Under the pieces are notes generated by a model. It had not been told where the DNA came from and made no database searches. It was given only the letters and a program-made list of their open reading frames with translations. The position numbers and the translations under genes are program-made. 42,050 nucleotides of DNA. Origin: a virus. The stretch's first letter is position 1; every line of letters begins with the position of its first letter. Shown in pieces: positions 13,818 through 42,050 of the stretch. The stretch lies in IMG/VR virus record IMGVR_UViG_3300021092_002721, positions 1 to 42,050 of that record; one strand, written 5' to 3'.

Positions 13818-15248
13818 CTAGAACTTTCCGAAATAAAACGGAACAAAGACGGTTATACTCTGTGGAGACGCTTCATTCACTAATTTGTGGAGCGTTTCCA
13901 TGGTTCCGCCATACTGAATATTATCATCTACAATTAAGACATTTTTCCCTCGTAGCTGATCATCCGAATTATATTGGGATACTCCGGCACTTTTCCCAAA
14001 TAATTGTACGTATCGCCGTTTAGATCCCATGCTGCCGGATGGTCCGGCAAGTGATTTATAAGTTGGCTGTAGACCAACCGGCGTACGTTCTAGCCCCTTC
14101 TGAAGCTTCGCAAATTCTTTGTCAGCCCACAACTTAGGCCATCTAGGATCAGTTGGGAGTATCGTTTCGTTGTATCGAACTGCCCCCAAATATTTTAATT
14201 GTGTCTTCCTGGTAATTTGCCTTTTTTTCGCTAACGCCGGACCTGGCGGCGTCGTTAAGTATTTGTTATGTATAGTATTTGCAAATCGCTGAAGCGCAGC
14301 ACGATCAATAGTCGATTCGAAGTAATCGGTGGTGTCTTCTCTGGGCCGTTTGGCAATTTCAATTACCGGAACACCACCATATGCTTCAGAGATGCGATTC
14401 GCGAATTCCTGATTGAAACTTTGAGTCTCACCAGCACGAACAGTCGAAGTTGGGTATGCAATAATGTCCGGGAAAACATCGTGCCCATCGCCCCACTGTC
14501 CGATTACATTGACTTTGTTAATAATCTGATCCAATATAGTAGTACGCAGTTGAGCTTCATGTGCATTGCGTGGATGTTTAATAATATGCCCAAGAGCATT
14601 TTTAAGAGCCGGTAACAGTTTTTTCTTGCCTGTATTATATCGGCGAGTTGATTTAGCAAGTATTTTTCTCAGGCCATCGACTGATTCCACTCCATTTGTC
14701 TTCAGCAGTCCTTCGACTTGTTTTATGACATCAATGTCACCCTGCAATTCACCGTGTACTTGTGCACGGTGGGCATCGTTGTGATATTGAACCGATTTAC
14801 TATTTAGGTCTCTCAATAATTCTTGGTGTTTTGCTGACAGAGAATCAAGATTATTCAATCTTCTGAATTTTCCTCGTGGTGGAGAAATAGCACTAAGGGC
14901 TCGTAAAATCGGCGGTTCTTGTTTTGCTTTGTAGAAATCGAGGTCGATGTCTGCGGGATCAGCCACACGATATGCATAGTATATCCGTGCCCCTTGAAAT
15001 GATTCTAGGGCTTCAGGGTCGGTAGGAGCTATATTGAGATTAACAGATTTTTGAAATGGTTCAATCTTGATAATATCATTTGGAGAATCTTGCGGTTGGA
15101 ATACAAACGTACCATTAGCCTCAAGAAATTGCATCAAATCAATTTGATTGACCTTTGCCTCACCCTGGAGTCGTTGCTCAATTTGAGCAAGATCGACTCC
15201 AGAATTTGGTAAGTACGATATACCTTCGGTAATGAGTTTCAGCTTCAT
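13818..15248 (-). CDS. Phosphoribosyltransferase-domain protein with capsid-targeting-like leader
   Basis: The 476-residue protein ends in a type I phosphoribosyltransferase signature: the PRPP-binding motif VLIVDDNIQYGGT at about residues 437-449 in GKNVLIVDDNIQYGGTM. The long N-terminal part (1-380) is not recognised; it includes basic helical stretches (KSTRRYNTGKKKLLPALKNA). The first eight residues, MKLKLITE, match the capsid-targeting form seen on other genes here, with a possible prohead-protease site ITE at position 8. No ribosome-binding site is obvious and the stop is TAG. Substrate unknown: purine or pyrimidine salvage, or modification of a host molecule, are possible. Confidence 0.65.
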   Translation of the reverse strand: MKLKLITEGISYLPNSGVDLAQIEQRLQGEAKVNQIDLMQFLEANGTFVFQPQDSPNDIIKIEPFQKSVNLNIAPTDPEALESFQGARIYYAYRVADPADIDLDFYKAKQEPPILRALSAISPPRGKFRRLNNLDSLSAKHQELLRDLNSKSVQYHNDAHRAQVHGELQGDIDVIKQVEGLLKTNGVESVDGLRKILAKSTRRYNTGKKKLLPALKNALGHIIKHPRNAHEAQLRTTILDQIINKVNVIGQWGDGHDVFPDIIAYPTSTVRAGETQSFNQEFANRISEAYGGVPVIEIAKRPREDTTDYFESTIDRAALQRFANTIHNKYLTTPPGPALAKKRQITRKTQLKYLGAVRYNETILPTDPRWPKLWADKEFAKLQKGLERTPVGLQPTYKSLAGPSGSMGSKRRYVQLFGKSAGVSQYNSDDQLRGKNVLIVDDNIQYGGTMETLHKLVNEASPQSITVFVPFYFGKF

Positions 15249-15295
15249 ACACTATGTTTACCTAGACGCAAAAATATTAAAACTAGGAGATCGCT

Positions 15296-15778
15296 ATGCC
15301 AAAGCCAGTTGAAAAAAATGTGGTGGATCTAGTGGCAAGTATGCTCACCTATGATCCAGACATCTTGATCGAAAGTGCTCCTGTCGTCAACGAGATGGGA
15401 AGATACGGTAACAAACGAACTCACACTGGCGGCGGCGAAGGGACTTACGAAGATGAAGAAGTCCCGTTAGACGCATCGGGGACTACCGGCCACGTTATTT
15501 ATACCTATGAGGTACACATCAGCGGCGGCTGGTATCCAGCCACATATGAAACACCCGCCGAAAGTCCCGATGTGCAAATCGGCAAAATCACCAATATGGA
15601 TGTCGTCGGATACGATGAAGACGGCAATGAAATCCAACCGACTCTAGAACAATTGGAAATCTGGAAAAAGTCAGCCGTAGCCTACTTCCATGAAAAATTG
15701 GAAGCGACAGTTATCGAGAAAGAATATGATAAGCTGTCTGGCGGCGATTATGATTATGAACCAGATTATGATTATTAA
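15296..15778 (+). CDS. Acidic hypothetical protein, 160 aa
   Basis: The family is not recognised. The product is acidic, with a Gly/Glu/Asp-rich stretch near residues 45-60 (GGGEGTYEDEEVPLD), a beta-like middle (HVIYTYEVHISGGWYPATYE) and a C terminus of Asp/Tyr repeats (YDYEPDYDY). TAGGAG lies 7 bases before the ATG, a strong ribosome-binding site. It is divergent from the phosphoribosyltransferase-domain gene with only 47 bases between the starts, so a shared bidirectional promoter region is likely. Confidence 0.6.
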   Translation: MPKPVEKNVVDLVASMLTYDPDILIESAPVVNEMGRYGNKRTHTGGGEGTYEDEEVPLDASGTTGHVIYTYEVHISGGWYPATYETPAESPDVQIGKITNMDVVGYDEDGNEIQPTLEQLEIWKKSAVAYFHEKLEATVIEKEYDKLSGGDYDYEPDYDY

Positions 15779-15797
15779 CCAGATTATAATGAGGACC

Positions 15798-15821
15798 GTC
15801 GCCCTCTGGATCGCCTAGACG
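15798..15821. repeat. 24-base exact copy of a piece of the RecB-like nuclease gene
   Basis: These 24 bases are identical to 25135-25158, inside the nuclease gene, where they encode RLGDPEGD. The flanks do not match. A 24-base match is far too long to be chance in a window of this size. Confidence 0.85.
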
Positions 15822-15935
15822 ATAATTAATTTTTGGTAGCCCGACCCCATTTCTTCTAATGACTTGCTGTTTATTCGCCTCTGTGTAGAATATATAGACA
15901 TAACAGATATATATTATAGATCACGAGGTGACGAA

Positions 15936-15992
15936 ATGACAGAACTCGCGATAAATCGATGTGGAACGTGTACTGCCGTGTACTGCTTGTAG
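15936..15992 (+). CDS. Tiny 18-aa peptide, possible gene remnant
   Basis: Behind an AT-rich, promoter-like stretch and the site CGAGGTGACGAA, an ATG opens an 18-codon frame (MTELAINRCGTCTAVYCL) ending in TAG just before a tRNA-like fragment. It has a C-x-x-C pair. It may be the truncated start of a gene disrupted by the tRNA cluster. Confidence 0.25.
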   Translation: MTELAINRCGTCTAVYCL

Positions 15993-16002
15993 TACGCTTT
16001 CA

Positions 16003-16028
16003 GCTTCCTAACCATTCAGATACCCTCC
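16003..16028 (-). pseudogene. tRNA-Ser 5' half relic
   Basis: On the minus strand, the 26 bases from 16028 match the first 26 bases of tRNA-Ser(CGA) at 16842 at all but three positions (same acceptor arm GGAGGGT, D-arm and start of the anticodon stem). After that no T-arm or matching acceptor strand can be found. It looks like a broken copy. Confidence 0.5.
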
Positions 16029-16036
16029 AGATTCAG

Positions 16037-16121
16037 TGACCGGAGAGGGAGTCGAACCCTCACGCCCGTTACAGAGCAAGGGATTTTAAGTCCCTAGTGT
16101 CTACCATTCCACCATCCGGTC
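16037..16121 (-). tRNA. tRNA-Leu(UAA)
   Basis: An 85-base cloverleaf with long variable arm. Acceptor GACCGGA pairs with TCCGGTC, discriminator A, D-arm GTGGAATGGTAGACAC in the leucine form, anticodon loop CTTAAAA (anticodon TAA) and T-arm GAGGGTTCGACTCCCTC. CCA is not encoded. Confidence 0.9.
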
Positions 16122-16220
16122 ATAATCACGAAATATATTCAAGAGGCAATCGCCATTTCAATACTATCGAAGATCGCAATGAACCATCTGTCGGATTGAC
16201 CGACTAATTCTCGACATCTC

Positions 16221-16373
16221 TTATATAATTCCGTGTTTTTTGATGTCGTCCCCGTATAAACAGACCGATTCTTCGCCGGTTTCGACTCGTTCCTTCCAAT
16301 ACGCGAGTTCTTCTGGCGGCAAGAAATCATCAAAGATCGTCAGATTTGGGAAGCTCTGGTCGTGTTTTACCAT
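16221..16373 (-). CDS. Small acidic protein, 50 aa
   Basis: The frame from ATG 16373 reads MVKHDQSFPNLTIFDDFLPP and continues to an acidic helix (EELAYWKERVETGEE) and a Cys-containing tail. It is clearly more protein-like than the competing minus-strand frame at 16139-16330. It overlaps the end of the 138-aa gene by 44 bases. The ribosome-binding site is weak. Small proteins of this kind are common in phage accessory regions; function unknown. Confidence 0.55.
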   Translation of the reverse strand: MVKHDQSFPNLTIFDDFLPPEELAYWKERVETGEESVCLYGDDIKKHGII

Positions 16374-16746: not shown

Positions 16747-16760
16747 ATTCACCTATCAAG

Positions 16761-16842
16761 CGGAGGACAAGGGATTCGAACCCTAAAAGCCTTTCGACCC
16801 GGCTGTTTTCGAAACGGCTTCCTGATCATTCGGATACCCTCC
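16761..16842 (-). tRNA. tRNA-Ser(CGA)
   Basis: Acceptor GGAGGGT pairs with GTCCTCC (two G-U pairs), discriminator G, anticodon loop TTCGAAA (anticodon CGA), serine-type long variable region and T-loop TTCGAAT. One mismatch (C-A) lies in the anticodon stem. No encoded CCA. Confidence 0.85.
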
Positions 16843-16853
16843 GTAAAATACAG

Positions 16854-16927
16854 TGGGCATTACTGGAGTAGAACCAGTGCACCTTCTGCGTGTCGAGCAG
16901 ATGCTCTACCAACTGAGCTAAACGCCC
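16854..16927 (-). tRNA. tRNA-Val(GAC), unusual C at position 33
   Basis: Acceptor GGGCGTT pairs with AATGCCC, D-arm GCTC/GAGC, anticodon stem TCTGC/GCAGA around loop TCGACAC. The anticodon is GAC, but the base before it is C rather than the nearly universal U33. T-arm ACTGG/CCAGT. No encoded CCA. Confidence 0.8.
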
Positions 16928-16932
16928 TATAA

Positions 16933-17106: not shown

Positions 17107-17187
17107 TGTGGACGGAGGGACTCGGACCCTCACACCTTACGGCACTGGCTCCTAAGACCAGCGTGTCTACCATTCCACCACATGTAC
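17107..17187 (-). tRNA. tRNA-Leu(UAG)
   Basis: Leucine-type D-arm, anticodon stem CTGGT/GCCAG around CTTAGGA (anticodon TAG), long variable arm, and T-arm GAGGG/CCCTC. The acceptor GTACATG against CGTCCAC has two mismatches, so the end of the molecule is degenerate. Confidence 0.75.
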
Positions 17188-17220
17188 ATGGGCAAATCTA
17201 TTATACAGGAGAAGGAATTA

Positions 17221-17724
17221 ATGGACGAAACCAAGAAACCTACTGAAAAATCTTCCGATAAGCCAGCTACTAAGGCCGAAAAGCCCGTCGTGGCCGAACA
17301 ACCGGCTACCGAAAAGCTCGTCGAGGCTTCTCCGAAGTCCGAAAAGCCTGTCGTGGCCGAACAACCGGCTACCGAAAAGCTCGTCGAGGCTTCTCCGAAG
17401 TCCGAAAAGCCACTTAAGACCGAAGAGGCCCAGAAGCCCGTCGATCCCGTTCTGACGCAAGAGAAGCCACAAGAAGTGGCAGAAACACGAACTCCCCCAC
17501 CAGAGCCAAAGGGCGAACCAGAGCCTGAATTGCCTCCCGCCGAAGAACCGGTTAGTAGAATTCCCCCTACTGAAGCTCCAGCCGCAGTTGAGCCGGTTGT
17601 TGAATCACCCGTAATGCAGTCTGAAGTCGTGGAATCCCAAACCCCCGGTCCTCATGGCTTGAAGTTCGGGAAGAAGAAGCCACGACCTAAAACTAAGCAT
17701 CTTCCACGGCGTAAAACCATCTAG
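17221..17724 (+). CDS. Low-complexity Pro/Glu/Lys/Ala protein with 21-aa tandem repeat
   Basis: From ATG 17221 (GGAGAAGGAATTA before it) the 167-residue product has almost no hydrophobic core. It is an unfolded acidic Pro/Ala/Glu chain with a basic tail (KFGKKKPRPKTKHLPRRKT). Residues 21-62 are two near-identical copies of a 21-residue unit beginning KPVVAEQPATEKLV. It runs opposite to the tRNA genes on both sides, and its TAG stop abuts the 3' end of tRNA-Ile. A DNA- or head-associated role would fit the basic tail, but nothing proves it. Confidence 0.65.
   Translation: MDETKKPTEKSSDKPATKAEKPVVAEQPATEKLVEASPKSEKPVVAEQPATEKLVEASPKSEKPLKTEEAQKPVDPVLTQEKPQEVAETRTPPPEPKGEPEPELPPAEEPVSRIPPTEAPAAVEPVVESPVMQSEVVESQTPGPHGLKFGKKKPRPKTKHLPRRKTI
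17281..17406 (+). repeat. 63-base tandem repeat, two copies
   Basis: Copies 17281-17343 and 17344-17406 differ at one base (CCC versus CCT). They encode two copies of the 21-residue unit. The near-identity suggests a recent duplication. Confidence 0.9.
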
Positions 17725-17908: not shown

Positions 17909-18364
17909 ATGCGACTACGAATAATAGATGAAAATAGGCTTCGAAGTCAAGTGTTAGATGGAAGAACAATCGTATATGAAATTCTAAATTCGTTTCCAGA
18001 CGGAGAAAGATTGCAACGAGCCCTATCGGCTGCCACAGGTGATTCTCCGAAATGGTTCGATGTTCATGCATTTAGAGATCACAGCGGCAAGCTTGTAGGA
18101 GTGGCTAGTCTCTGGAAAGCACCAGATCATGGAGACTCTGAAGGGATGCCCAAGGGCGATTATTTAAGAATAGGAAGTTTAGCAACCGCCCATCCTGGAA
18201 TTGGATCAGAAGTCATAAGAGGTTTAAAGTCCGTAGCCGCAGACCATGGGGCTGGATTGTACCTATCTTCGACGGAAGGGTCTGCCCAAATCTATAAAAA
18301 GCACGGATTTCGTGAGGGTTTCGGAGCTACCTATTATTTGACTGATGAAGACGTTTCGTTATAA
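17909..18364 (+). CDS. GNAT acetyltransferase-like protein with capsid-targeting-like leader
   Basis: The 151-residue product has the GNAT fold elements: a core strand with YLRIGSLATAHPGIGSEVIR, the acetyl-CoA region, and the late YKKHGF motif typical of GNATs (IYKKHGFREGF). Its first residues, MRLRIIDE, follow the shared leader form, with a possible cleavage site IDE. I prefer ATG 17909; a GTG-started reading from 17879 begins inside the tRNA boundary. If packaged, it would act in the host early in infection. Substrate unknown. Confidence 0.65.
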   Translation: MRLRIIDENRLRSQVLDGRTIVYEILNSFPDGERLQRALSAATGDSPKWFDVHAFRDHSGKLVGVASLWKAPDHGDSEGMPKGDYLRIGSLATAHPGIGSEVIRGLKSVAADHGAGLYLSSTEGSAQIYKKHGFREGFGATYYLTDEDVSL

Positions 18365-18368: not shown

Positions 18369-18503
18369 ATGCGACTACGTAAATTCGATCCCGAACAACT
18401 TCGAATGAGAATCGAAACCAAATTAGAACAGACATCAGACAGCAGAGTCGCCAAAGAAATCGCGAAAGATCATCTCAAAGAAAATCCGAAAGATTTATAC
18501 TAA
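18369..18503 (+). CDS. DUF5661-like small protein, 44 aa
   Basis: The frame begins MRLRKFDPEQLRMRIE and continues KLEQTSDSRVAKEIAKDHLK to the end ENPKDLY. It matches the pattern I recall for DUF5661, a small protein found in many phages (leader, an E-x-E segment with Thr/Ser-Asp, then AKEIAxDHLxExP). Its start MRLR resembles the shared leader, though the protease-site form is less clear (FDPE). It begins four bases after the preceding gene's stop and overlaps the convergent downstream gene by 4 bases. Confidence 0.5.
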   Translation: MRLRKFDPEQLRMRIETKLEQTSDSRVAKEIAKDHLKENPKDLY

Positions 18504-22099: not shown

Positions 22100-22438
22100 A
22101 TGGCACGCAATATGCAAAACAATTTTAAAACACTTGCTCGAAAGTTGCGGCGTGAGTTTCCGTTGTCACGTCCTTTGCGAATTGTGTGTAAAAAACTGAA
22201 TAAGCAAAAAATCTGTGGGAGTTGTATCACATATCTCGACAACGATGGATCTATAATTCGTTTTGTTATTGAAGTAGATACACACTTGTCGGCATTGTCT
22301 GCGATTGACACGTTACTCCACGAGTACGCGCACGCACTCGATCAAGAGCTTAACGGCGTAGCGGTTGAAGCGCATCGCGCAAGCTGGGGCGTTTGCTATG
22401 CGCAAATTTGGAGATTTTATGTGACACATTTCACTTGA
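22100..22438 (+). CDS. SprT-like zinc metalloprotease-like protein
   Basis: The 112-residue product carries HEYAH (His74, Glu75, His78) in LLHEYAHALDQE and a later conserved His-x-x-x-Trp segment (HRASWGVCY). This layout matches the SprT-like phage family. A zinc protease or a DNA-protein crosslink repair role is possible. AAGGAGGG precedes the start, and it follows the metallophosphoesterase gene by 24 bases, so the two are probably one transcript. Confidence 0.65.
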   Translation: MARNMQNNFKTLARKLRREFPLSRPLRIVCKKLNKQKICGSCITYLDNDGSIIRFVIEVDTHLSALSAIDTLLHEYAHALDQELNGVAVEAHRASWGVCYAQIWRFYVTHFT

Positions 22439-23422: not shown

Positions 23423-24472
23423 ATGTTACCACGATACGATCACCCAAAAATCTCAGAAATTTGGTCCATTGGCAATAAATACCTTGTATGGACGCAAATT
23501 GAATTATCATTTCTGTCAGAACTAAAAGCCGTCTCCATTCTCGCCCCTGATCATTTCGAGTCATCGTGGATCGATGACATCCAATCGAGAGAAATGCAAA
23601 CGAAACACGATGTAGTCGCATTCGTTGAGTGGCTCGAATCGAAAGTACACGAAACTGATCCATTATTCAGCCGATTCGTGCATTATGGTTTGACTTCATC
23701 GGACATTGTTGACACCGCTTTTTCTATGATGATCCGTGCCAGCAATGAAGTTATCACTGATCTCTTGCGAGCACTCGTATCTATACTCAAGCAGAAAATC
23801 TCTGAGTGTGATGGAATTATGATCGTGGGACGAACTCATGGGCAGGCCGCAGAACTAATGCCACTCAGCCAAAAGTTCGATACATATTTGCACACAATTC
23901 TCAGGTACGGAACATTCAAATGTGCTTATTACGGACGATTGGCGGATAGTGTAGGATCACTAAAGTATGTCAATCGTGCTGTCGTTATAAACACGCTGTC
24001 TAAACTGAATCTCGTCGAAGGCTTGTATGATGGGCAGATCATCCACCGTGGCATCTATGCAGAACGCATGAATGAATGGGCATTATTGGCAAGTGCAATC
24101 GCGAAAATTGCAACCGATATTCGGCTATTATCACAAAGCGGAATAGAAGAAATGGCAGAAGGATTTGAAGAAAACCAAGTCGGATCATCCAGCATGCCGC
24201 ACAAGCGAAATCCTATACAATGTGAGAATATTTGTGGTCTAGCCAGAGTAATTAGAGGATATCAAACCACAGTAATGCAGAATATTGAACTGTGGAACGA
24301 GCTAGATATCAGCCATTCAAGTGCCGAAAGGATCGTTTTTCCAGACGCGGCAGTATTATTGGGATTTATGATTGAACGAATGACAAATATTATCACAAAT
24401 CTGAGAATCGACAAAGACAAGATCGCTCGAAATACACAAACGCCCGGATTATCCGTGATAAATCATATGTAA
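23423..24472 (+). CDS. purB: Adenylosuccinate lyase, C-terminally shortened
   Basis: The 349-residue protein follows bacterial PurB closely: RYDHPKISEIW start, TKHDVVAF (His62, Asp63), HYGLTSSD (residues 87-94), GRTHG (His139) and the fumarase-superfamily signature GSSSMPHKRNP (254-264) with the flexible-loop serines. PurB cleaves adenylosuccinate and SAICAR in purine synthesis. The usual ~430-residue protein continues about 75-80 residues further; here it ends soon after TPGLSVINHM, at the convergent GNAT gene. It may be inactive or a minimal form. CGGAGAAGAAA precedes the start. Confidence 0.85.
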   Translation: MLPRYDHPKISEIWSIGNKYLVWTQIELSFLSELKAVSILAPDHFESSWIDDIQSREMQTKHDVVAFVEWLESKVHETDPLFSRFVHYGLTSSDIVDTAFSMMIRASNEVITDLLRALVSILKQKISECDGIMIVGRTHGQAAELMPLSQKFDTYLHTILRYGTFKCAYYGRLADSVGSLKYVNRAVVINTLSKLNLVEGLYDGQIIHRGIYAERMNEWALLASAIAKIATDIRLLSQSGIEEMAEGFEENQVGSSSMPHKRNPIQCENICGLARVIRGYQTTVMQNIELWNELDISHSSAERIVFPDAAVLLGFMIERMTNIITNLRIDKDKIARNTQTPGLSVINHM

Positions 24473-24934
24473 ACTATCTTGAGACCATCCACGTCCTTCC
24501 GGTTCAAATCCGTAACGTCGTTCCAGATAACCGGCTAATTTCGGATTCACAACATACACACGGATGTAGGCATTTCCAAATTCAGATTTCAGTGAGCGGT
24601 AGTGGTCTAAAGCAGCATCAATAAGTTTTGGCCCAATCCGAGCAGACGCCATGCCCATCGCTCGCGATTTTGGATCAACTGCAACGTCAAAATCGAAGCG
24701 GTATACATCCTCTCCGTATTCTTGACTTGCTTCATCGTCACGTTCGAACGCTGACCAAACCGCCCCGACAACTTCGCCACCTACTTGTGCGACTAGTGTT
24801 AACTCTTTATTCCGAGATATTCTAATTCCCGAATTGCTAGCAATACGGTCTGCCTGATCAGCAGCCTCCCAATCTTCGGGATCTGCCGCATTAATCTCAG
24901 GTTCTACGAATTCGAGTATAGTGCGAAGTTTCAT
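24449..24934 (-). CDS. GNAT acetyltransferase with capsid-targeting-like leader
   Basis: The 161-residue protein has the GNAT core: VDPKSRAMGMASARIGPKLI with the acetyl-CoA loop form, and the closing YLERRYGF segment. Its first residues MKLRTILE follow the shared leader form with a possible protease site ILE. There is no ribosome-binding site; the ATG sits just after the hairpin at 24941-25008. It overlaps the end of the convergent purB gene by 24 bases. Target unknown. Confidence 0.7.
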   Translation of the reverse strand: MKLRTILEFVEPEINAADPEDWEAADQADRIASNSGIRISRNKELTLVAQVGGEVVGAVWSAFERDDEASQEYGEDVYRFDFDVAVDPKSRAMGMASARIGPKLIDAALDHYRSLKSEFGNAYIRVYVVNPKLAGYLERRYGFEPEGRGWSQDSLHMIYHG

Positions 24935-24940
24935 GCACTA

Positions 24941-25008
24941 TATTTTAATGAGCCGACATAGAAGAAGGTCGTGAAAGCGGCCTTCTTCTATGTCGGCTCA
25001 TTAAAATA
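24941..25008. repeat. 30-base inverted repeat (long hairpin)
   Basis: Arms 24941-24970 and 24979-25008 are complementary at 29 of 30 positions around an 8-base loop. The TAG stop of the nuclease gene (24988-24990) lies inside the right arm, and the start of the GNAT gene is seven bases beyond. It has no clear U-run, so it is as likely to be an RNA-processing or mRNA-stability site as a terminator. Confidence 0.85.
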
Positions 25009-27074: not shown

Positions 27075-28694
27075 TTAGAGGTTAGAGACCGTGATGGTTG
27101 CGTAGTACAGACCACCGTCTTCGATGAGCTTCTTGCCGTATCGGGTCATGATACCCTTGTTCGGCGTGAAGCTGTTTGGATCGAGAACGGTCGGCGTGCT
27201 GAGCAACGGAATGTATGGGGCGTAGAAGTAGCCCGCATCCAGAACGCTGCTGCCCTTAAATCCGAGCAGGATCTTGCAATTCGGGAAGAGCGGATCTTTG
27301 TAAATCCGCATCTTGCCTTGGATCGTGCCGACGTTCATGATGCCGACATCCACACCTTCTGTAGTGAAGGCGTCCGATGCACGGAAGTCATTCAACTGCT
27401 CGAACTTCGAGCAGATGTCAGCACTCATCACCATCCAGTTCGCCGGACCACGGAGAGTGGTGCGGTGGATGATGTTGGCGACTTCGAGCGTCTTGTACAT
27501 CAACGCGATGTTGCGGTCTGTGAAGTTGACCGATGCACCGGCTGCCGTCGCGAAGTTGTGATCAGCACGAATCGAGGCGGAAATGATCAAGTCGTTGATG
27601 ATTTCGCGGTCGATTTCGGCGACCATTTCGTCGGCCATCAAGTCCGTCAAGGTGCTCTCGGCATCGATGTTGTGCACCGACTTCAGGTCTTGAGCGGCTT
27701 CCAGCGACCAAGAGGTCTTCAGCTTGCGGGTGATAGCAGCGACCGAATCGCTGTCGATGCTCAACGTAACTTCCGGCTGGAACGGGTTGGCTTCGAGATC
27801 GTACTCGTAGTTCACCCGTGCGACAGCTCCACCCGGGAAAACACCGGCACTCAGAGTGATCTGAACTGCACCGGTTGTGTGGTTGAAGGTTGTCGCACCA
27901 GCAGTAACCGTATCAACAGAGATGTTAGCGGTGAACTCAGTGCAGTCACCAACCAACACGGTATCGGGACTGCCGTCCGCATCGAAGGTAACTCGCAAGC
28001 AAGGCACTGCGTCATCGCAGTTCGGGCCTGCATCGGCTTCGCTGGCGAATGCTTCGACCACGACCGTTCCAGCGAGAACCGGGCGATGGGCCAGAGTCGC
28101 TGAAATCACTGTGCCACCGACAATCGTCGCGTCTTCGCCACGAACTTCTTGCGAAGAGTAATACGGGTCAAGTGCCCAACCGTTCTGACGGGCAGAGCCT
28201 TGAGCGGTGTTCTGACGCATGATCTGCGTTCCGGCAACCGTCTGTCCCTTCGTGAGAGCGTAACGATATCGGATGTAGAAGATCAAGCTGGCTGGCTGGC
28301 TCATCGGTTGAACGCCGACGAGATTGTCAGCAATCAACTTCGGATAGGACTTCCGGATGAGCGGAAGAGCGAACCGAGTAAAATCGGCGATGTTCGCGGT
28401 TGTCGTCTGGTCTTCGAAGATGACCGAGCGATTTTCCGGATTGTTGTGCTTGTACTGGTTTTCGAGAATTGCCGCCATCAAGCCGAATTTCTGCGGCGTG
28501 ACTTCACGGCACTTGCTGAGCACCGGGGACCACTTCTTGACGAGTGCATTCTTCTTGGACTCGTGAAAAACTGATGCCTTGTGCAAATCGGTTTCTTCCG
28601 TAATTGGACGGCGACCGGCTCCCGCACCTTCAACCAGATGACGGCGACGAGCGTTGCCAGACACCGCAGTACGGCTGCTTCGCGTTGGTAACAT
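27075..28694 (-). CDS. Major capsid protein, T4 gp23-like
   Basis: The 539-residue protein matches the T4 gp23 family: SVIFEDQTTTANIADFTRF followed by ALPLIRKSYPKLIADNLVGV and QPMSQPASLIFYIRYRY in the central region. The N terminus is probably removed in maturation; possible prohead-protease sites LVE (residues 20-22) and ITE (31-33) lie near the start. AAGGAG is 9 bases before the ATG. It follows the scaffold gene and ends at a strong terminator, as expected for the most abundant virion protein. Confidence 0.9.
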   Translation of the reverse strand: MLPTRSSRTAVSGNARRRHLVEGAGAGRRPITEETDLHKASVFHESKKNALVKKWSPVLSKCREVTPQKFGLMAAILENQYKHNNPENRSVIFEDQTTTANIADFTRFALPLIRKSYPKLIADNLVGVQPMSQPASLIFYIRYRYALTKGQTVAGTQIMRQNTAQGSARQNGWALDPYYSSQEVRGEDATIVGGTVISATLAHRPVLAGTVVVEAFASEADAGPNCDDAVPCLRVTFDADGSPDTVLVGDCTEFTANISVDTVTAGATTFNHTTGAVQITLSAGVFPGGAVARVNYEYDLEANPFQPEVTLSIDSDSVAAITRKLKTSWSLEAAQDLKSVHNIDAESTLTDLMADEMVAEIDREIINDLIISASIRADHNFATAAGASVNFTDRNIALMYKTLEVANIIHRTTLRGPANWMVMSADICSKFEQLNDFRASDAFTTEGVDVGIMNVGTIQGKMRIYKDPLFPNCKILLGFKGSSVLDAGYFYAPYIPLLSTPTVLDPNSFTPNKGIMTRYGKKLIEDGGLYYATITVSNL

Positions 28695-28737: not shown

Positions 28738-29457
28738 TTAGATCAGGTCTTCGTCCATACCCTCGGCAATGTCACCAATGTTAAACCCACGTTGTGGTTG
28801 GGTTTGAACAGGCGAAGCCTTGCGTTGTGGCTGGCGTCGGTCCTGATTTTCGAGGAGCGTCTGACGAGTCGTTACCGGGTGAGTGGCAGTACGGCTTACG
28901 TCAATTCTCTTTCGTCCGCCTTGTGTTTGGCGTGACTCAGAGACCGTACCCAAGCGTTGCTTGAGTTGTGCGTTCTCTGCGGCCAACCGTCGATTCTCCT
29001 TGAGAGCTTTCTCGGAGATCGCTACTTGGCGATTGGCAACTTCGACTGCACGAGTGCGTTCCTCGTTGACCTGCTGGATCTTGAGCTTTGCCTTGTCCAA
29101 CGCGGCTGTAGCTTGTCCATTTGGCTCACCATTCGGCTCGATGCCCTCAAGGAGGGACATAACGTTCTTAAGCCTGGTAACAGCCTCGGACTCACTAAGG
29201 GCCGACTGCTTAGCAAGCTGTGCCTCAATCGCAGCAGCTTTCGTCTCACAGAAGATCTGAACTCGACGAGCGAGTTCTCTCTTGTGTGCTTCCGTCTCTT
29301 CGATGCAGACTTTCTTAGCCTGCTCGATACGATTCTGGTAGTCAGAATCGTATTGCTCACGAAGAGTTGTCTTGTAGTCCTCAAGGGCCTCGCAGATGCT
29401 GCCAACCAAGTCCTGGTTGCAACCTGCCTTTTCCAAGAGTGTCTTGATCTTGTTCAT
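28738..29457 (-). CDS. Prohead core scaffold, gp22-like
   Basis: The 239-residue protein is mostly helical and charged, with long coiled-coil-like segments (residues 25-180, rich in Glu, Gln, Ala, Arg) and a Pro/Gln/Arg-rich disordered tail (QTQGGRKRIDVSRT, then further repeats). Size, helical content and position between protease and capsid genes fit T4 gp22. GAGGAG precedes the start. It should form the internal core of the prohead and be degraded during maturation. Confidence 0.7.
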   Translation of the reverse strand: MNKIKTLLEKAGCNQDLVGSICEALEDYKTTLREQYDSDYQNRIEQAKKVCIEETEAHKRELARRVQIFCETKAAAIEAQLAKQSALSESEAVTRLKNVMSLLEGIEPNGEPNGQATAALDKAKLKIQQVNEERTRAVEVANRQVAISEKALKENRRLAAENAQLKQRLGTVSESRQTQGGRKRIDVSRTATHPVTTRQTLLENQDRRQPQRKASPVQTQPQRGFNIGDIAEGMDEDLI

Positions 29458-29519: not shown

Positions 29520-30302
29520 TTATCTCCGAGACCGGCTCGGAATCTTTGGTCCACGCTTGTCCAAACCGAAGTAACTTTCAATCTCTTGAACCAAGAGATT
29601 TTGGTATGCTTGCGGACTGAATCGATTGCGGGATTCCTTAATTGGTTTCAACCGCCGACTCAGGCTTTCTTGGATTTGCAGAATTGCCCCATTCACTGAC
29701 GGTTCCGCCACAGCGTCCCACGTCACAAATGAATATCCAGGCATCACGCGATAAATCTGATGTCCATGGTGTTCCGCGACTTCCATATCACCCACACCAC
29801 GGGATGAAATACCAACTCGAACTTTATGTTCAAACAACCCGCGAAGGTATGAACCGCAAGGCAGTTTGTGAAGCACTTCAGCTTCACCGAATACCTTCTT
29901 CCCATCCATCCACACTTTCGTGATCAGATGGCTTACGCGGTCGAGATGGATTTTGGCATCGGCTGGGTGGTCAAATTCACCCATCACGGCTCGATGAGAA
30001 ACGTCTTCTTGAATTCCCCGAACAGCAGGAGCAAGAACATCATTGCTTGGATAGAAGCGTTGATTGGCGTTCTCTTTGTCGCCCATTTGGAAAAGCCCAG
30101 TGACTCGCATCACTGGAACTTCTTTGCCGTTAACGTCTTCCGTTACTGTTTCTTTCCGATCAATAATTTCGAATGGGAAAACATCACGGATAAGCTGCAT
30201 ACCGGTAGGAATAACACCAGTTTCAGCGATTAATCCCCGATTGATGGCAGGGAAACCACGCTCTTCCATAAGCGTGGCATATGATCGACGGCTAGGCAAC
30301 AT
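29520..30302 (-). CDS. Prohead protease, gp21-like (peptidase U9)
   Basis: The 260-residue protein shows conserved T4 gp21 features: NANQRFYP near residue 80, catalytic His112 in GEFDHP and Ser166/Ser167 in SSRGVG. The T4 enzyme cleaves prohead proteins after (L/I)-x-E. Its gene lies between the large acidic protein and the scaffold gene. It would also be the enzyme expected to cut the leaders on the cargo-like genes. Confidence 0.85.
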   Translation of the reverse strand: MLPSRRSYATLMEERGFPAINRGLIAETGVIPTGMQLIRDVFPFEIIDRKETVTEDVNGKEVPVMRVTGLFQMGDKENANQRFYPSNDVLAPAVRGIQEDVSHRAVMGEFDHPADAKIHLDRVSHLITKVWMDGKKVFGEAEVLHKLPCGSYLRGLFEHKVRVGISSRGVGDMEVAEHHGHQIYRVMPGYSFVTWDAVAEPSVNGAILQIQESLSRRLKPIKESRNRFSPQAYQNLLVQEIESYFGLDKRGPKIPSRSRR

Positions 30303-35464: not shown

Positions 35465-35524
35465 ATGTGGTCCTCAAAATCTATTCTATATTTACTGAAA
35501 TTGGTGCCATTGAGGGTAAAAACA

Positions 35525-36049
35525 ATGAGCGATTTTTGGTACTGGCTCCGAGACATATTTAGACGAAACCGACCTACTCCGCCACAACCCCCATTGCCAC
35601 CACCTACACCAACGTCCGTTGCTGGAGAATTGTTAGTCGCTCACAACAATGAACGTACAAAAGCGGGTGTAAGTATATTAACTCTCGATAGTAAGTTAGT
35701 TACAGCCGCAGAGAAGCATGCAAAATGGATGGCCGATAACGAATTGTTGTCGCACAGAGGATCACGTGGTTCGAACGTTGCTAGCAGAATCAGGGATGAA
35801 GGACATCGTCCACAAGCAATGGGAGAGAATATCGCACGTGGTTATAGCACAGTCACGTCAGTCATGCAAGGTTGGATGTCATCTTCCGGACATCGTAGAC
35901 ACATTCTAGCCAGAAAATATAAAAATTGTGGGTTCGCGAAAGTTGGGCGTTATTGGTGTGCAGTCTTTGTAACATCATTAAGCCGACAGTTGGTTTTCAC
36001 TAAATCCGTAAGCCACGAACCAGAACCGCTCTATGGTACGGAAGAATAG
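35525..36049 (+). CDS. CAP/SCP-domain protein
   Basis: From ATG 35525 (GAGGG upstream) the 174-residue product has a short Pro-rich start and then the CAP domain: LLVAHNNERTKAG, His65 in KHAKWMA, His77 in LSHRG, Glu101 in MGENIARG and His123 in SSGHRRHIL. CAP proteins are usually secreted and may bind lipids or act as toxins; here no signal peptide is clear. It is the only plus-strand gene between terminase and portal, divergent from the portal gene, and looks like an inserted gene. Confidence 0.8.
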   Translation: MSDFWYWLRDIFRRNRPTPPQPPLPPPTPTSVAGELLVAHNNERTKAGVSILTLDSKLVTAAEKHAKWMADNELLSHRGSRGSNVASRIRDEGHRPQAMGENIARGYSTVTSVMQGWMSSSGHRRHILARKYKNCGFAKVGRYWCAVFVTSLSRQLVFTKSVSHEPEPLYGTEE

Positions 36050-39336: not shown

Positions 39337-39377
39337 AATCCTCACCTCCAAAAAAGCTACAATATTTTTGGTGAGGT

Positions 39378-40361
39378 CTACTCTTCATCAAAGTCCACAT
39401 TCGATTTCCGATTGTCGATCTTAGGTTCGCCAATAGATCGATTCAGCATCGAATCAGAGAGTTCGAAGCTACGTAGCTTCACAAGATGCAAAAAATTCGT
39501 CACAATCACCCGCGATAGACCAGACTGGTCAACCAATTTACCAATAAGACCATCATATGGACGGTCATCATTCAGAACCAAGTATTCTAATGCATCAATG
39601 ATTTTCAAATGATTATCGTCATACTGATTCAATTCTCTTATTTCTGATAAGAATCTAGCCATCACTCCGCTGACGGGCTTCTGCTTATTTCCGAGATGAC
39701 TAACATATGACCCAGAATTCTTTCGGTCACGACCTTCTTTTTTGATGTGGGCAAGAATCACTGTTCTGGCAATCTGAGACCACATATTAAAAACTTTTGA
39801 CATCCCGCGATACAAAATGGTCTCAGAACCACCATATCGCCCTTGGACCGGTTCAATAATCGGGGTTGTGGTCAATTTGATTCCGCACTTTGGGCAATGC
39901 CGGTGCATCGCCACTACTTCATCTAATGTCTTGATTCCATATTCGAGATCGCCCGGTTGATACAATAACGATTCGGCTGGACGTTCCCAATTGAAGCACT
40001 TACGACAATGTGGGCGTGAACGATACTTGTACAAAGTTCGTTCAATTTGAACCCATGCTGTCTGAAGAAGATCACCGAAAGACGATTCATCCTGGCCGGG
40101 ATAGATGGTATGCAAGCCTTGCTTACGAATGATCTGGCGAATCAATTCGGTAGCATGCGACATAATCATGTCGCGTAATCGAACTTGGGTGCAACCGGTC
40201 CATAAATATTGAGTAAGCTGCCATTCGACTATTTCATTAATGAAATACAGTTTCCGCAGCGGAACCTCAGGTGTTGAAGAGGGTTCGCTGGGCTGTTGTT
40301 GCTCTAGAGAAGAACTTTCGTTCGATTCTAAATCGTCGCTTTTCAACGAGTTCTCGGCCAT
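39378..40361 (-). CDS. Sigma-factor-like protein with inserted zinc site (late sigma candidate)
   Basis: The 327-residue product shows sigma-70-like elements. Region 2.1/2.2-like SSFGDLLQTAWVQIERTLYKY (residues 93-113), then an inserted segment with four cysteines (C119, C122, C156, C159: HCRKC, then HCPKC), then region 2.3/2.4-like RGMSKVFNMWSQIARTVILA, and a C-terminal helix-turn-helix (LVDQSGLSRVIVTNFLHLV, near 276-294). T4 gp55 is the late sigma of phages of this kind, so this may be its counterpart with a zinc insert. The start is uncertain; it overlaps the helicase by 95 bases. Stop is TAG. Confidence 0.6.
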   Translation of the reverse strand: MAENSLKSDDLESNESSSLEQQQPSEPSSTPEVPLRKLYFINEIVEWQLTQYLWTGCTQVRLRDMIMSHATELIRQIIRKQGLHTIYPGQDESSFGDLLQTAWVQIERTLYKYRSRPHCRKCFNWERPAESLLYQPGDLEYGIKTLDEVVAMHRHCPKCGIKLTTTPIIEPVQGRYGGSETILYRGMSKVFNMWSQIARTVILAHIKKEGRDRKNSGSYVSHLGNKQKPVSGVMARFLSEIRELNQYDDNHLKIIDALEYLVLNDDRPYDGLIGKLVDQSGLSRVIVTNFLHLVKLRSFELSDSMLNRSIGEPKIDNRKSNVDFDEE

Positions 40362-41886
40362 CAATGACACCACCGGGGAATATTACCTGAACGTCGAATC
40401 CGGCATTTACCATGGCTTTCAATCTGGATTTCGAGTGACTGTAGAGATATCTGTTGCATCGGAAGAAAAAATCAAAAATCCTGCTATATCCTTGTTGATT
40501 TCTTCGAAGGGCACGTCCGACTTTTTGTATCAAGTCGGATTGTAGTTTACCTCCTCCAGCAATTATCAGATTCTCACAGCCTCCTGCCAAATCGAGTCCA
40601 CGATTGATAATTTTACCACCAATAAGTACGTTGAACTCTCGCTTTTCAAACTTCCGCAGTATCTCATCTCTGCGACGCTTTGGTGTCTCGCCATAAATGA
40701 AGTGAGCTTCCATTCCCTGACCGTTAATTGATTTCTCCAATGCGAATCCAAGATCTTTACGATCCACAAGAATCAACGTTCCGTCTTCCCGATATTTCTT
40801 GCAGATACTAGTAATAAGCTGATGAAAGCGTTGGTTTTCGATTAACCATTCAACATACGCCATATCATAAGCCGAAGCTTCATCAATGTTTCCCTCTAGA
40901 CCGAATGCCATCATTTTGTAATGGCATGGAATGATTCGGCCATGCTTCTGAACATTATCGCGGGTTTCCTTCACGATAATCGATCCGAGATGCTCCTGCA
41001 TCACCATCGCTTCCACTGGCTTATCCGGGTCGATAGGCGTTGCAGAAAATCCGTACCGTCTTCGCCCCTTATAATAGTGTCTGAACAGTGATTTATAAGA
41101 TTCCGAAGTGGCTTTGTCGCATTCATCGACAATTATCATCTCAGCCTTTCTGACATATGAATATAAGAATTTGACATTCTTCACCCTAGTCTGATGTGCT
41201 TTGTATGATTGATCCCATTTTTGCAGCCGTTTGTTTAATGCATTATCTGTTTCATTAAGCTTTCGTATCGGAACATCTGGCGGCTTTTTTGGTGGATTCA
41301 ATGATTGAATCAACCCAACTATGACCATCTCGCCGTTCGGTCGCTTGCCAGCATAGAACAAACCAACTTCTTCAGCGATATCACGCAATTCAAGCCGTTT
41401 TTTCAACTGATCCACAACCACTCGTTGATCTGCCAGAATCAATGTGGGGCAGGGAATCGCTTTGCAAATGCCACAAATGACTTCACCCTTCCCACTTCCA
41501 GTGGGCATATCAATGATTCCGCACTCAGCCTTGCAACATTTCTGAATCGCCCGAATTTGATAATCTTCGAGCTTAATACCTGGCAAGAAGTCTGGGGTTA
41601 TATCTTCTGGCTTTGCAGCCTCGTATGCCCACTGCTGGCGACGATCTTGTATGATCAACGGCAATCCGTGCTTCGTACACACTCCTCGAAGCATGCTCAA
41701 TAGAGGTCGAGCCATTCGCTTTTTAGCCCGATTGTATTTGCGATAGATTCCATCCCAATTACCACGCATTGCTGGATCGATATAGACATTCGGCTTACAA
41801 ACGCTAAATTCTTCCCATATTATCTGATCCTCAGGATCAGTAATATGATCAAGATAAATCCATTGATTGTCAACGTAAGCTATCAT
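40267..41886 (-). CDS. DEAD/DEAH-type helicase, UvsW-like
   Basis: The 539-residue protein has helicase motifs in order: Walker A as PTGSGKGEV (residues 128-136), DECD (254-257) in IIVDECDKA, FSATP near 280-284, and QKVGRALRR as motif VI. A small N-terminal domain (1-100) precedes the motor, as in T4 UvsW. It should unwind recombination or replication intermediates and switch origin replication. The start at 41886 has no ribosome-binding site. Its 3' end overlaps the sigma-like gene by 95 bases. Confidence 0.8.
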   Translation of the reverse strand: MIAYVDNQWIYLDHITDPEDQIIWEEFSVCKPNVYIDPAMRGNWDGIYRKYNRAKKRMARPLLSMLRGVCTKHGLPLIIQDRRQQWAYEAAKPEDITPDFLPGIKLEDYQIRAIQKCCKAECGIIDMPTGSGKGEVICGICKAIPCPTLILADQRVVVDQLKKRLELRDIAEEVGLFYAGKRPNGEMVIVGLIQSLNPPKKPPDVPIRKLNETDNALNKRLQKWDQSYKAHQTRVKNVKFLYSYVRKAEMIIVDECDKATSESYKSLFRHYYKGRRRYGFSATPIDPDKPVEAMVMQEHLGSIIVKETRDNVQKHGRIIPCHYKMMAFGLEGNIDEASAYDMAYVEWLIENQRFHQLITSICKKYREDGTLILVDRKDLGFALEKSINGQGMEAHFIYGETPKRRRDEILRKFEKREFNVLIGGKIINRGLDLAGGCENLIIAGGGKLQSDLIQKVGRALRRNQQGYSRIFDFFFRCNRYLYSHSKSRLKAMVNAGFDVQVIFPGGVIDGRELVEKRRFRIERKFFSRATTAQRTLFNT

Positions 41887-41892
41887 AAGACA

Positions 41893-41900
41893 TATAAATA
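41893..41900 (+). promoter_or_regulatory. T4-type late promoter box
   Basis: TATAAATA is the exact consensus of the T4 late promoter. It lies 49 bases before the ATG of the plus-strand gene at 41949, leaving a leader of about 35-40 bases. The reverse strand of the same site lies close to the start of the divergent helicase gene. Confidence 0.65.
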
Positions 41901-41948
41901 CGCAAATATAACATCAACCAAACAAACATTATACATGGGACCCATGGC

Positions 41949-42050
41949 ATGAAATTATCACTGATAATTGAAGCTGAATTCACCAGACGAAATTTCTTAA
42001 AAAGTATGGCCGGTGCGGCAGCAGCACTTTCTGGAAATGCGCCAATAGCT
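41949..42050 (+). CDS. Leader-bearing protein with Tat-like segment, N-terminal part
   Basis: Only 34 residues are visible before the window ends. They begin MKLSLIIEAEFTRRNFLKSM and continue with an Ala-rich hydrophobic run (AGAAAALSG). The first eight follow the shared leader form, with a possible protease site IIE. TRRNFLK then matches the twin-arginine signal motif (S/T)RRxFLK. Both features at once are unusual: after capsid-protease cutting, the new N terminus would be an almost normal Tat signal. The rest of the protein is out of view. Confidence 0.6.
   Translation, partial: MKLSLIIEAEFTRRNFLKSMAGAAAALSGNAPIA

What the first reader, a model, noticed from the sequence alone, without database searches (positions are those of the whole stretch)
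13818..42050. Shared N-terminal leader: a possible set of capsid-packaged, injected enzymes
Five genes here start with M-[KR]-L: MKLKLITE (phosphoribosyltransferase-domain protein), MRLRIIDE (GNAT), MKLRTILE (GNAT), MKLSLIIE (Tat-like partial) and the looser MRLRKFDPE (DUF5661-like). They are unrelated downstream of the leader. T4 capsid-targeting sequences are short N-terminal peptides cut by gp21 after (L/I)-x-E (Alt starts MELITE). The window has a gp21-like protease and an MCP with LVE and ITE sites. That unrelated enzymes share the tag suggests cargo packed in the head and injected into the host to modify its proteins or nucleotides.
Basis: partly seen in the sequence, partly recalled or inferred. 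Interest (0 to 1): 0.92.

Follow-up and report, generated by a model that had tools for sequence, protein, structure and literature searches.

The report
Shared packaging tag on phage proteins
A family of very large, uncultured bacterial viruses puts the same eight-residue start, ending in a likely protease cut site, on dozens of otherwise unrelated proteins, which probably marks them for loading into the virus head and delivery into the host cell, so the set of injected proteins might be read from the genome.

Summary
The leader is real and strongly non-random. In 14 related records, 34 of 2,686 genes start M[KR][LI]xx[IL]xE. Column permutation gives a mean of 1.0 (maximum 5); other spacings give 0-6; internal methionines match once in 12,707. 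68 such proteins fall into 56 sequence families, among them GNATs, phosphoribosyltransferases, a SAM lyase, an ADP-ribosyltransferase-like and a 2H phosphoesterase-like protein.

All 18 records tested carry a gp21-type protease. The capsid protein has conserved (I/L)xE sites (38 and 33 of 39), and leader position 6 follows the same I/L preference by clade. A SAM-lyase homologue with a closely similar xE|SSLSR junction was found in purified cyanophage S-CREM2 virions (PMC10665884). In that phage, LxE by residue 15 occurs in 9 of 13 virion-detected but 3 of 33 undetected ORFs checked.

Best reading: a lineage-specific capsid-targeting propeptide of the T4 kind, cut after E8, for injected cargo. 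Cleavage, packaging and injection are inferred, not shown. New variant of a known kind.

The parts
13818..15248 (-). 476-aa phosphoribosyltransferase-domain protein; leader MKLKLITE|G encoded at 15225-15248
   Evidence: leader; PF00156 5.1e-6 at residues 428-471 (26.3 bits, equal to the cut-off); homologue in the 595-kb phage LR756511 reads MDFKEWYFINE|G from a GTG, with the E|G junction aligned; ACATA ends 4 nt before the ATG
17909..18364 (+). 151-aa GNAT protein; leader MRLRIIDE|N at 17909-17932 (weakest of the four: missed by the gene caller, possible upstream GTG start, no promoter-like element)
   Evidence: (PF00583 3e-4)
24449..24934 (-). 161-aa GNAT protein; leader MKLRTILE|F at 24911-24934
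   Evidence: PF00583 2.6e-5; homologue in G016 (43% in the alignment) starts MKLSILHE|S, also found by a search with the body alone; AAATATA-like element ends a few nt before the ATG
41949..42050 (+). start of a 285-aa protein; leader MKLSLIIE|A at 41949-41972, then a twin-arginine (Tat) signal TRRNFLK
   Evidence: complete in G001/G002; PF10518 9.9e-5, 22.5 bits against cut-off 22.7
18369..18503 (+). DUF5661-like small protein (MRLRKFDPE): not a member of the tagged set
   Evidence: PF18905 3.9e-5, 24.3 bits against cut-off 27, match begins inside the supposed tag
29520..30302 (-). gp21-type prohead protease (S77), the presumed enzyme that removes the leader; its own N-terminus holds LIAE27|T
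   Evidence: PF03420 4.1e-17; phrog_207 1.5e-38
27075..28694 (-). gp23-type major capsid protein with predicted protease sites at E45 (FHE|S) and E94 (IFE|D); also LVE22 and ITE33
   Evidence: PF07068 6.4e-80
28413..28415 (-). codon of E94, predicted capsid maturation site [IL][FL]E|[DNE]
   Evidence: 38 of 39 distinct relatives; coordinate
28560..28562 (-). codon of E45, second predicted capsid site, xE|[SAG]
   Evidence: E here in 37 of 39, with I, L or V two before it in 33 of 39; the window's own triplet is FHE, so it is not among the 33; coordinate
28738..29457 (-). gene between protease and capsid gene, by position the scaffold; starts MNKIKTLLE, which resembles the tag but is not one because the E is not conserved
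   Evidence: many relatives read MDKIKxLL or similar followed by E, Q, A, G, S or K

Best explanation
M[KR]Lxx[IL]xE is a lineage-specific capsid-targeting propeptide. The eight residues make an otherwise ordinary protein bind the assembling prohead core; the phage's gp21-type protease then cuts after E8, freeing the protein in the head; it leaves through the tail with the DNA and acts in the new host before early genes are made. Different genes have acquired the same leader, so it serves as a reusable address for a changing cargo of host-modifying and anti-defence enzymes. Shown: the leader is real, clade-wide, at a fixed distance from the start, selected at protein level, and in front of unrelated proteins. 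Supported by comparison: the protease site. Inferred: packaging, cleavage and injection.
For: (1) 34 of 2,686 against a permutation mean of 1.0; only the two-residue gap is enriched; 1 of 12,707 internal methionines. (2) 68 proteins in 56 BLAST families (two of the 68 are judged false, see evidence against); the 71 leaders found have 71 different DNA sequences, with synonymous codons mixed at the fixed residues, so selection is on the protein. (3) Leader DNA pattern: 84 matches against 10 for the reversed pattern in 41 records, 23 with a match (recounted; near-duplicate records included); 16 against 11 in 10 records of the named collection, so it is specific to this clade. (4) Searching with protein bodies alone (residue 12 on), homologues of the window GNAT (1 of 1), of the L107 family (all) and of L145 (1 of 1) carry the strict leader, and homologues of L017 and L033 a variant. 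In the L107 family M1, K2, L3, I6 and E8 are five of eight invariant columns, though its members were collected by the leader. (5) The residue after E is S or A in 19 of 34, as at capsid site B; capsid sites conserved in 38 and 33 of 39. (6) Leader position 6 is I:L 32:5 in one capsid clade and 2:21 in the other; capsid site A P3 is I:L 18:6 and 3:11. (7) S77 protease in 18 of 18 records. (8) The tagged SAM lyase (PF23780 2e-11) has matches in 27 named phage records. I compared it with six of them (Microcystis, Alishewanella, Campylobacter, Synechococcus, two Lak): all seven have E followed by [SK][SG][LI][SN]R behind leaders of different length, with I or L two before the E in 6 of 7. The Synechococcus S-CREM2 protein was detected in CsCl-purified virions with 19 unique peptides (PMC10665884). 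(9) In S-CREM2, 9 of 13 virion-detected and 3 of 33 undetected ORFs checked have [LIVF]xE by residue 15, Fisher 1e-4. (10) Tagged genes have a late-promoter-like element just before the ATG in 20 of 70, other genes in 110 of 2,662.
Against: No virion data for any phage of this clade were seen; cleavage, packaging and injection were not observed. The scaffold, a natural place for such a leader, lacks the conserved E. Point 6 compares two clades, so shared ancestry alone could give it, and G017 does not fit (capsid ILE, tags L). By permutation one to five of the tagged genes could be chance; L183:17050 (MoxR-type) is one, since 4 of 4 homologues lack the leader, and L038:2103 is an antisense frame. 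Some homologues lack the leader: 1 of the 80-aa family, 2 of L082, 4 of 4 of the DUF5662 protein, 2 of 2 of L072:5729, 4 of 4 of L091, 21 of 22 repeat-protein frames matching L072:2382. 18 of 41 records have no match to the K-leader DNA pattern, mostly short ones but also G004 (83 kb), G011 (178 kb) and G018 (102 kb). At least 38 of 67 tagged proteins match no Pfam family (29 member-family matches in all). The xE|SSLSR junction could be conserved for a reason other than cutting.
Confidence: 0.84

Rival explanations
1. The leader is a head-assembly tag without injection: the proteins are internal structural or core components that stay in the head or are degraded on maturation.
For: Some tagged families are small, of unknown function and recur in several phages, e.g. 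the 80-aa family A2 and family A3, which could be core proteins; T4 gp22 and gp24 also carry N-terminal LIAE and LLRE sequences.
Against: Several tagged proteins look like enzymes with no structural role (GNAT, SAM lyase, 2H phosphoesterase, PRT, exonuclease-like) and are sporadic: 49 of the 56 families have one member among the sequences held.
Confidence: 0.1
2. The leader is an address for something other than the capsid, such as a phage compartment, a host complex or a regulated degradation signal.
For: Nothing in the sequence alone excludes a non-proteolytic role; other huge phages build compartments (review passages).
Against: The leader ends in the T4 gp21 consensus L/I-x-E (PMC9026906 passages) at a fixed place, is followed by the same residues as capsid site B, follows the capsid I/L preference by clade, and a homologue of the tagged SAM lyase is a virion protein.
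Confidence: 0.04
3. The shared start is a DNA or translation-initiation signal, not a peptide signal: leaderless late mRNAs would need a particular sequence just after the ATG.
For: Tagged genes often have a late-promoter-like element ending a few bases before the ATG and seldom a Shine-Dalgarno-like sequence (8 of 70 against 1,215 of 2,662).
Against: All 71 leader DNA strings differ and synonymous codons are mixed at residues 2, 3, 6 and 8; E8 lies 22-24 nt downstream; 50 of 70 tagged genes lack the element, and 110 untagged genes have it without the leader.
Confidence: 0.02

Closest known systems
T4 capsid-targeting sequence of IPI, IPII, IPIII and Alt
   Same: Short N-terminal propeptide on unrelated proteins, ending in L/I-x-E, with a gp21-type protease in the genome; in T4 the leader alone packages foreign proteins (PMC9026906 passages), and IPI and Alt enter the host (PMC3012670 and PMC5512222 passages).
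   Different: T4 IPII/IPIII leader is MKTYQEFIAE, 10 residues; here M[KR]Lxx[IL]xE, 8 residues. Here up to 11 matches per record and 56 families over the clade. Processing not shown here.
Virion-packaged enzymes of cyanophage S-CREM2
   Same: SAM lyase homologue with a closely similar xE|SSLSR junction, found in virions; ORFs 6, 13, 14 and 154, found in virions, start MKDFDSFLEE, MKDLHSFLTE, MKRFDAFLTE and MKNFSSFLTE. The authors propose that the SAM hydrolase enters the host.
   Different: Different leader dialect. The paper's main text has no occurrence of 'capsid targeting', 'targeting sequence', 'propeptide' or 'cleav'. That the shared leader marks these proteins is my reading.
Inner-head ejection proteins of phiKZ and SPN3US
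   Same: Propeptides cut after E by a prohead protease; proteins enter the host (PMC5694885 passages).
   Different: Several of their propeptides exceed 100 residues, and the motifs are S-x-E or A-x-E. phiKZ and 201phi2-1 have no S77 match and no match to the leader pattern.
Polyvalent proteins (Iyer et al. 2017, PMC5512222)
   Same: Predicted to be injected; same enzyme classes (ART, GNAT, peptidases); one tagged protein hits ART-PolyVal, 25.8 bits, under the 31.2 cut-off.
   Different: Polyvalent proteins combine 2 to 15 domains in one chain; the tagged proteins are mostly small and separate, with a common address instead.
Phage SAM lyases (T3 SAMase, Svi3-3)
   Same: L028 tagged protein matches PF23780, 44.4 bits against cut-off 28.
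   Different: T3 SAMase is described as the first viral protein expressed on infection (PMC8406200, abstract in the listing); here it would be carried in ready-made.

Membership tests
T4-type capsid-targeting sequence and cargo | One short N-terminal leader shared by otherwise unrelated proteins of one phage | tested here: met
   in 67 aligned proteins only M1 and E8 are invariant, consensus MKLxxIxE (M1 and E8 by construction of the search)
T4-type capsid-targeting sequence and cargo | Leader ends in L/I-x-E, the gp21 cut motif | tested here: met
   E is the residue at position 8 in 34 of 62 genes with M[KR][LI]xx[IL]x; next is L with 5
T4-type capsid-targeting sequence and cargo | gp21-family (S77) protease in the same genome | tested here: met
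   Window; 18 of 18 records
T4-type capsid-targeting sequence and cargo | Leader is removed by the protease | not testable with these tools
   Only indirect: agreement with conserved capsid sites
T4-type capsid-targeting sequence and cargo | Protein is present in the virion | not testable with these tools
   A homologue of one tagged protein is (S-CREM2 SAM hydrolase)
T4-type capsid-targeting sequence and cargo | Protein enters the host | not testable with these tools
   No data for this clade were seen
T4-type capsid-targeting sequence and cargo | Late (head-stage) expression | tested here: inconclusive
   Late-promoter-like element in 20 of 70 tagged against 110 of 2,662 other genes; consensus match only
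T4's own leader (MKTYQEFIAE type) | Same residues and length as the T4 leader | tested here: not met
   8 residues, M[KR]Lxx[IL]xE; the pattern has one match in T4, not at the ip or alt genes
phiKZ/SPN3US ejection proteins | S80-type protease with S-x-E or A-x-E sites | tested here: not met
   Window protease is S77 at 62.8 bits; the S80 profile gives 14.2, below its cut-off of 23.4; leader site is [IL]xE
Polyvalent proteins | Several unrelated domains in one polypeptide | tested here: not met
   In the 10 tagged proteins and 10 Pfam shows one kind of enzymatic domain each, except L144:7505 with a weak NT5C-like match besides its PRT; one search gives tallies only for the rest
SAM lyase (PF23780), L028:12386-13084 | Match above the curated cut-off | tested here: met
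   44.4 bits against 28; catalysis not tested
Tat substrate, protein starting at 41949 | Twin-arginine signal after the leader | tested here: inconclusive
   PF10518 22.5 bits against cut-off 22.7; TIGR01409 not matched by it at 0.05. Its homologue L009:13459 passes TIGR01409 at 17.0 against 16.7, E 0.0057

The most novel reading that the evidence does not exclude
Each T4-type lineage has its own leader dialect that has co-evolved with its protease and core: MKTYQEFIAE in T4, MK[DNR][FL]xxFL[TE]E in S-CREM2, M[DE]F[KR]E[FW] leaders ending in NE in the 595-kb phage, M[KR]Lxx[IL]xE here. Any gene that picks up the local leader becomes head cargo, so the injected set of uncultured huge phages can be listed from sequence. 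It includes enzymes delivered ready-made to destroy SAM, modify proteins or degrade signal nucleotides, and at least two proteins with a second address, a Tat signal exposed just after the cut, which would send injected cargo on from the cytoplasm to the periplasm.
Probability: 0.45. Interest if true: 0.87.

Novelty: new variant of a known kind. Interest (0 to 1): 0.74.

Why it matters
For huge phages known only from metagenomes, what they inject along with their DNA is hard to learn by experiment. If this leader is what it appears to be, it is a barcode: scanning a genome for it lists candidate injected effectors at once, including small proteins with no recognisable domain that could be anti-defence factors acting before any phage gene is expressed. 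It also offers new packaging signals to test for protein delivery in T4-type heads in laboratory systems.

Tried and rejected
MRLRKFDPE as a fifth tag: rejected, it lies in a DUF5661-like match. Scaffold MNKIKTLLE as a tag: rejected, the E is not conserved. L183:17050 (MKIGALKE): chance match, homologues start MAKISVIKE, MAKISILKE, MNISKAKLA or MNISIGKKA. L012 and L038 leaders: frames on the strand opposite the head genes, inferred to be antisense from their position; L038 was left out of alignment A1 and both out.

A DNA-level explanation was tested and rejected (71 different DNA strings). A loose motif ([LIVF]xE near any start) shows only a weak peak at position 8; the strict fixed-spacing form carries the signal. 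One search covered a guessed back-translation and found nothing.

The leader outside the clade: the K-leader DNA pattern is not enriched in 10 records of the named collection (16 against 11), including LR756511 (3 against 2). That record has another leader: a pattern built from two starts that I had seen has 4 matches against 0 reversed, so two are new. Of the four starts, three end FINE, LNE and INE, but one ends ANE, outside L/I-x-E.

Leader-seeded searches for families A2, A3 and A4 cannot test leader conservation, because the tool chose the leader as a search seed; I do not count them. PADLOC gave weak matches (ShosT 2, DEDDh 1, PsyrT 1 of 67); which members match was not shown. ShosT and PsyrT are, as I recall, phosphoribosyltransferase-type toxins, so the two tagged PRTs may be toxin-like; not followed up. 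A structure of the Tat-bearing protein was predicted without an alignment and failed (mean pLDDT 42.5), so no fold search was made. tblastn of the window GNAT and of the ART-like protein against the named phages found nothing at 0.01. Literature: searches; in the listings and passages that I saw, none describes this leader; most subscription papers are not held.

Row losses: one search kept the best 80 of 142 loci. One search uses 14 of the 18 whole records (G002 dropped as a near copy of G001; G008, G011 and G018 not fetched; G004 fetched in part), distinct by the first 30 residues, ATG starts only, without the window. One search used 70 of 71 leaders. One search used 68 of 71 (three under 60 aa); one search used 67. 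One search aligned 49 of the 80 capsid loci plus LR756511; 5 of these 50 rows were not placed and 6 were duplicates, leaving 39. One search left out three judged false and 6 leaders without a clade, and leaders inside longer open frames; its capsid table for clade 2 lost rows by a script fault and is replaced (one row, HMK, has no site). One search covers 46 S-CREM2 ORFs of a record with 221 annotated features, and none of the core structural region.

Full report
What the window is. The window is a whole IMG/VR record of 42,050 bases, a fragment of a tailed phage. It matches parts of two longer records, G001 (157 kb) and G002 (100 kb), at 99.93% or more. It carries a gp23-type capsid protein, an S77 prohead protease, a portal and a large terminase. 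The capsid protein brought in 142 relatives, of which 80 loci were kept, some in records up to 408 kb; all 18 whole records tested have the S77 protease. The best-ranked named record by capsid is LR756511, an uncultured 595-kb phage at 40% identity.

The observation. Four window genes start with M[KR]Lxx[IL]xE: the phosphoribosyltransferase-domain protein, two GNATs, and the protein running off the right end. The fifth, MRLRKFDPE, is the start of a DUF5661-like domain. The first GNAT (17909) is the least secure: the gene caller missed it and an upstream GTG start is possible.

Chance test. I called genes in 20-kb pieces of 14 related records with a caller blind to the motif. Of 2,686 distinct ATG-start genes, 34 match M[KR][LI]xx[IL]xE. 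Shuffling the four columns among genes gave a mean of 1.0 and a maximum of 5 in 1,000 rounds. With other gaps between the hydrophobic positions the counts were 0, 0, 4, 1, 1, 4, 6 and 4. Of 12,707 internal methionines one matches. Given M[KR][LI]xx[IL]x, residue 8 is E in 34 of 62; the next is L with 5. After the E come S (10), A (9), D (4), G (3), N (3) and five others once each (all). A direct scan of all loci found 71 such starts distinct by their first 35 residues; at residue 8 E (71) is four times as common as the next, S (17).

Clade specificity. The leader as a DNA pattern occurs 84 times against 10 for the reversed pattern in 41 records, 23 of which have a match (near-duplicate records included). 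In 10 records of the named collection (T4, phiKZ, 201phi2-1, phage G, RaK2, RM378, SP-15, S-SRM01, LR756508, LR756511) it is 16 against 11 (LR756511 is in both sets), although 7 of those 10 have an S77 protease. So the exact leader belongs to this clade. Not every relative shows it: 18 of the 41, mostly short but including G004, G011 and G018, have no match.

Protein-level signal. The 71 leaders have 71 different DNA sequences, with synonymous codons mixed at the fixed positions. To avoid the bias of having collected proteins by their leader, I searched with bodies only, from residue 12. The window GNAT at 24449-24934 has one homologue, in G016, and it starts MKLSILHE|S. All homologues in the L107 family keep the leader; so does the one of L145; those of L017 and L033 have a variant; in the 80-aa family one homologue lacks it. 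Against this, homologues of L082 (2), of the DUF5662 protein (4), of L072:5729 (2), of L091 (4) and nearly all of a repeat family (21 of 22) lack it. The leader is thus kept in some families and gained or lost in others, as a movable address would be.

Cargo. The 68 tagged proteins of at least 60 residues form 56 BLAST families, 49 of them single. Of 67 scanned, Pfam sees GNAT in 5, phosphoribosyltransferase in 2, and once each a SAM lyase (2e-11), a 2'-5' RNA ligase/2H phosphoesterase (7.7e-17, with a weak Acb1 match), ART-PolyVal (2.1e-5, under its cut-off), RNase_T (under its cut-off), DUF5662 and a Tat signal (just under its cut-off); at least 38 match nothing at 0.01. One, a MoxR-type ATPase, is a chance match and one an antisense frame.

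Link to the protease. T4 gp21 cuts after L/I-x-E (PMC9026906, passages). In 39 distinct capsid N-terminal regions (from 49 of the 80 loci) a site [IL][FL]E|[DNE] is present in 38, and a second, [ILV]xE|[SAG], in 33 (the window itself has FHE|S at the second). The second has the same following residues as the leader. Two capsid clades differ: leader position 6 is I:L 32:5 in one and 2:21 in the other, and the capsid site has I:L 18:6 and 3:11 (Fisher 0.002). This fits one protease reading both, but two clades are one comparison, the tagged proteins are not all independent, and G017 does not fit (capsid ILE, tags L).

A virion-proven homologue. The tagged SAM lyase has matches in 27 named phage records. 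I compared it with six: all seven proteins have E followed by [SK][SG][LI][SN]R, behind leaders of quite different length, and 6 of 7 have I or L two before the E. The S-CREM2 homologue (LEE|SSLSR; here ICE|SGLSR) was detected by mass spectrometry in CsCl-purified virions with 19 unique peptides, and its authors propose that it may be encapsulated and enter the host (PMC10665884, passages and section 18). Four of the S-CREM2 virion proteins start MKDFDSFLEE, MKDLHSFLTE, MKRFDAFLTE and MKNFSSFLTE: the same design in another dialect. Of 46 S-CREM2 ORFs that I checked, 9 of 13 detected in virions and 3 of 33 not detected have [LIVF]xE by residue 15 (Fisher 1e-4). This is the nearest thing to an experimental calibration of the inference. 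The paper's main text does not contain 'capsid targeting', 'targeting sequence' or 'propeptide'.

The window's own first case has a similar echo. The phosphoribosyltransferase has a partial homologue near the capsid gene of LR756511 (38% over 60 residues at the C-terminal end, 31% over 96 at the N-terminal end); from a GTG preceded by AGGAGG it reads MDFKEWYFINE|G, and the E|G junction aligns with the window's MKLKLITE|G. LR756511 has three further M[DE]F[KR]E[FW] starts against 0 for the reversed pattern (the pattern was built from two of the four), two of them preceded by AATAAATA or TATAAATA five bases before the ATG; one of the four ends ANE, not L/I-x-E.

Expression. In 20 of 70 tagged genes a late-promoter-like A[AT]ATA ends three to six bases before the ATG, against 110 of 2,662 other genes (Fisher 1.8e-11), and Shine-Dalgarno-like sequences are rarer, 8 of 70 against 1,215 of 2,662. 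The element also precedes untagged genes, one of them terminase-like by eye (L193). This suggests late, possibly leaderless transcripts; it is a consensus match, not a mapped promoter.

Mechanism. I read the leader as a capsid-targeting propeptide: binding to the prohead core, cutting after E8 during maturation, release of the cargo into the head, ejection with DNA. T4 work shows that ten residues of IPIII suffice for packaging foreign proteins, and that targeting and processing residues are separable (PMC9026906, passages). In our leader the conserved L3 and I6 would be the targeting face and I6-x-E8 the cut site; that assignment is inference. The Tat-like signal right behind the cut in the protein at 41949, and in its homologue L009:13459, raises the possibility of a second export step in the host; this is the most speculative part.

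Verdict. It is a new variant of a known kind, T4-type capsid targeting, with a clear test.

Noticed in passing
G004 and G018; LR756508 and SP-15: The S77 protease match is split or lies in an unusually long open frame (657, 614, 576 and 568 aa in that order), as if an intein or other insertion sits inside the protease gene.
   Followed up: no
L156:17095-19926 (G003): Terminase-like frame reads ...GGWPCATGETLIQTDQGLVRLDELCRG, which looks like an intein start inside the terminase.
   Followed up: no
window 15249-15260, 24935-24946 and 9324-9335: Similar elements (AACATAGTGT, AATATAGTGC, AAATATATCGT) end a few bases before the ATG: possible leaderless late promoters.
   Followed up: partly
window 17272-17411: A direct repeat with a 63-base period inside the 180-aa ORF (17182-17724) encodes two copies of a KPVVAEQPATEKLVEASPKSE unit; seen as off-diagonal blast hits.
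   Followed up: no
L072:1636-2382 and frames of L183-L185, L187, L196 (G016) and others: A large family of repeats of the type GRWPEGEEAIKxDPxWAYxYA, one member of which carries the leader.
   Followed up: no
window 29520-30302: The protease N-terminus holds an IAE|TG in many records of one capsid clade, but IAQTG, IAMTG or VARTG in some of the other, so self-cleavage there would be clade-specific.
   Followed up: no
window 2110-2925, 13069-13629, 22100-22438, 35465-36049: Other domains: papain-family protease (1.4e-7), cpYpsA/SLOG (1.2e-40), SprT-like (1.6e-4, under its cut-off) and a CAP-domain protein (1.1e-19).
   Followed up: no
OR473000 (S-CREM2) ORF12: A Cas9-annotated nuclease found in virions starts with a longer leader that ends in FMAE|A at residue 25.
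   Followed up: partly
tagged phosphoribosyltransferases (window 13818-15248; L144:7505-8983): PADLOC lists ShosT (2 members) and PsyrT (1) among the tagged set; if these are the two PRTs, the cargo may be toxin-like.
   Followed up: no
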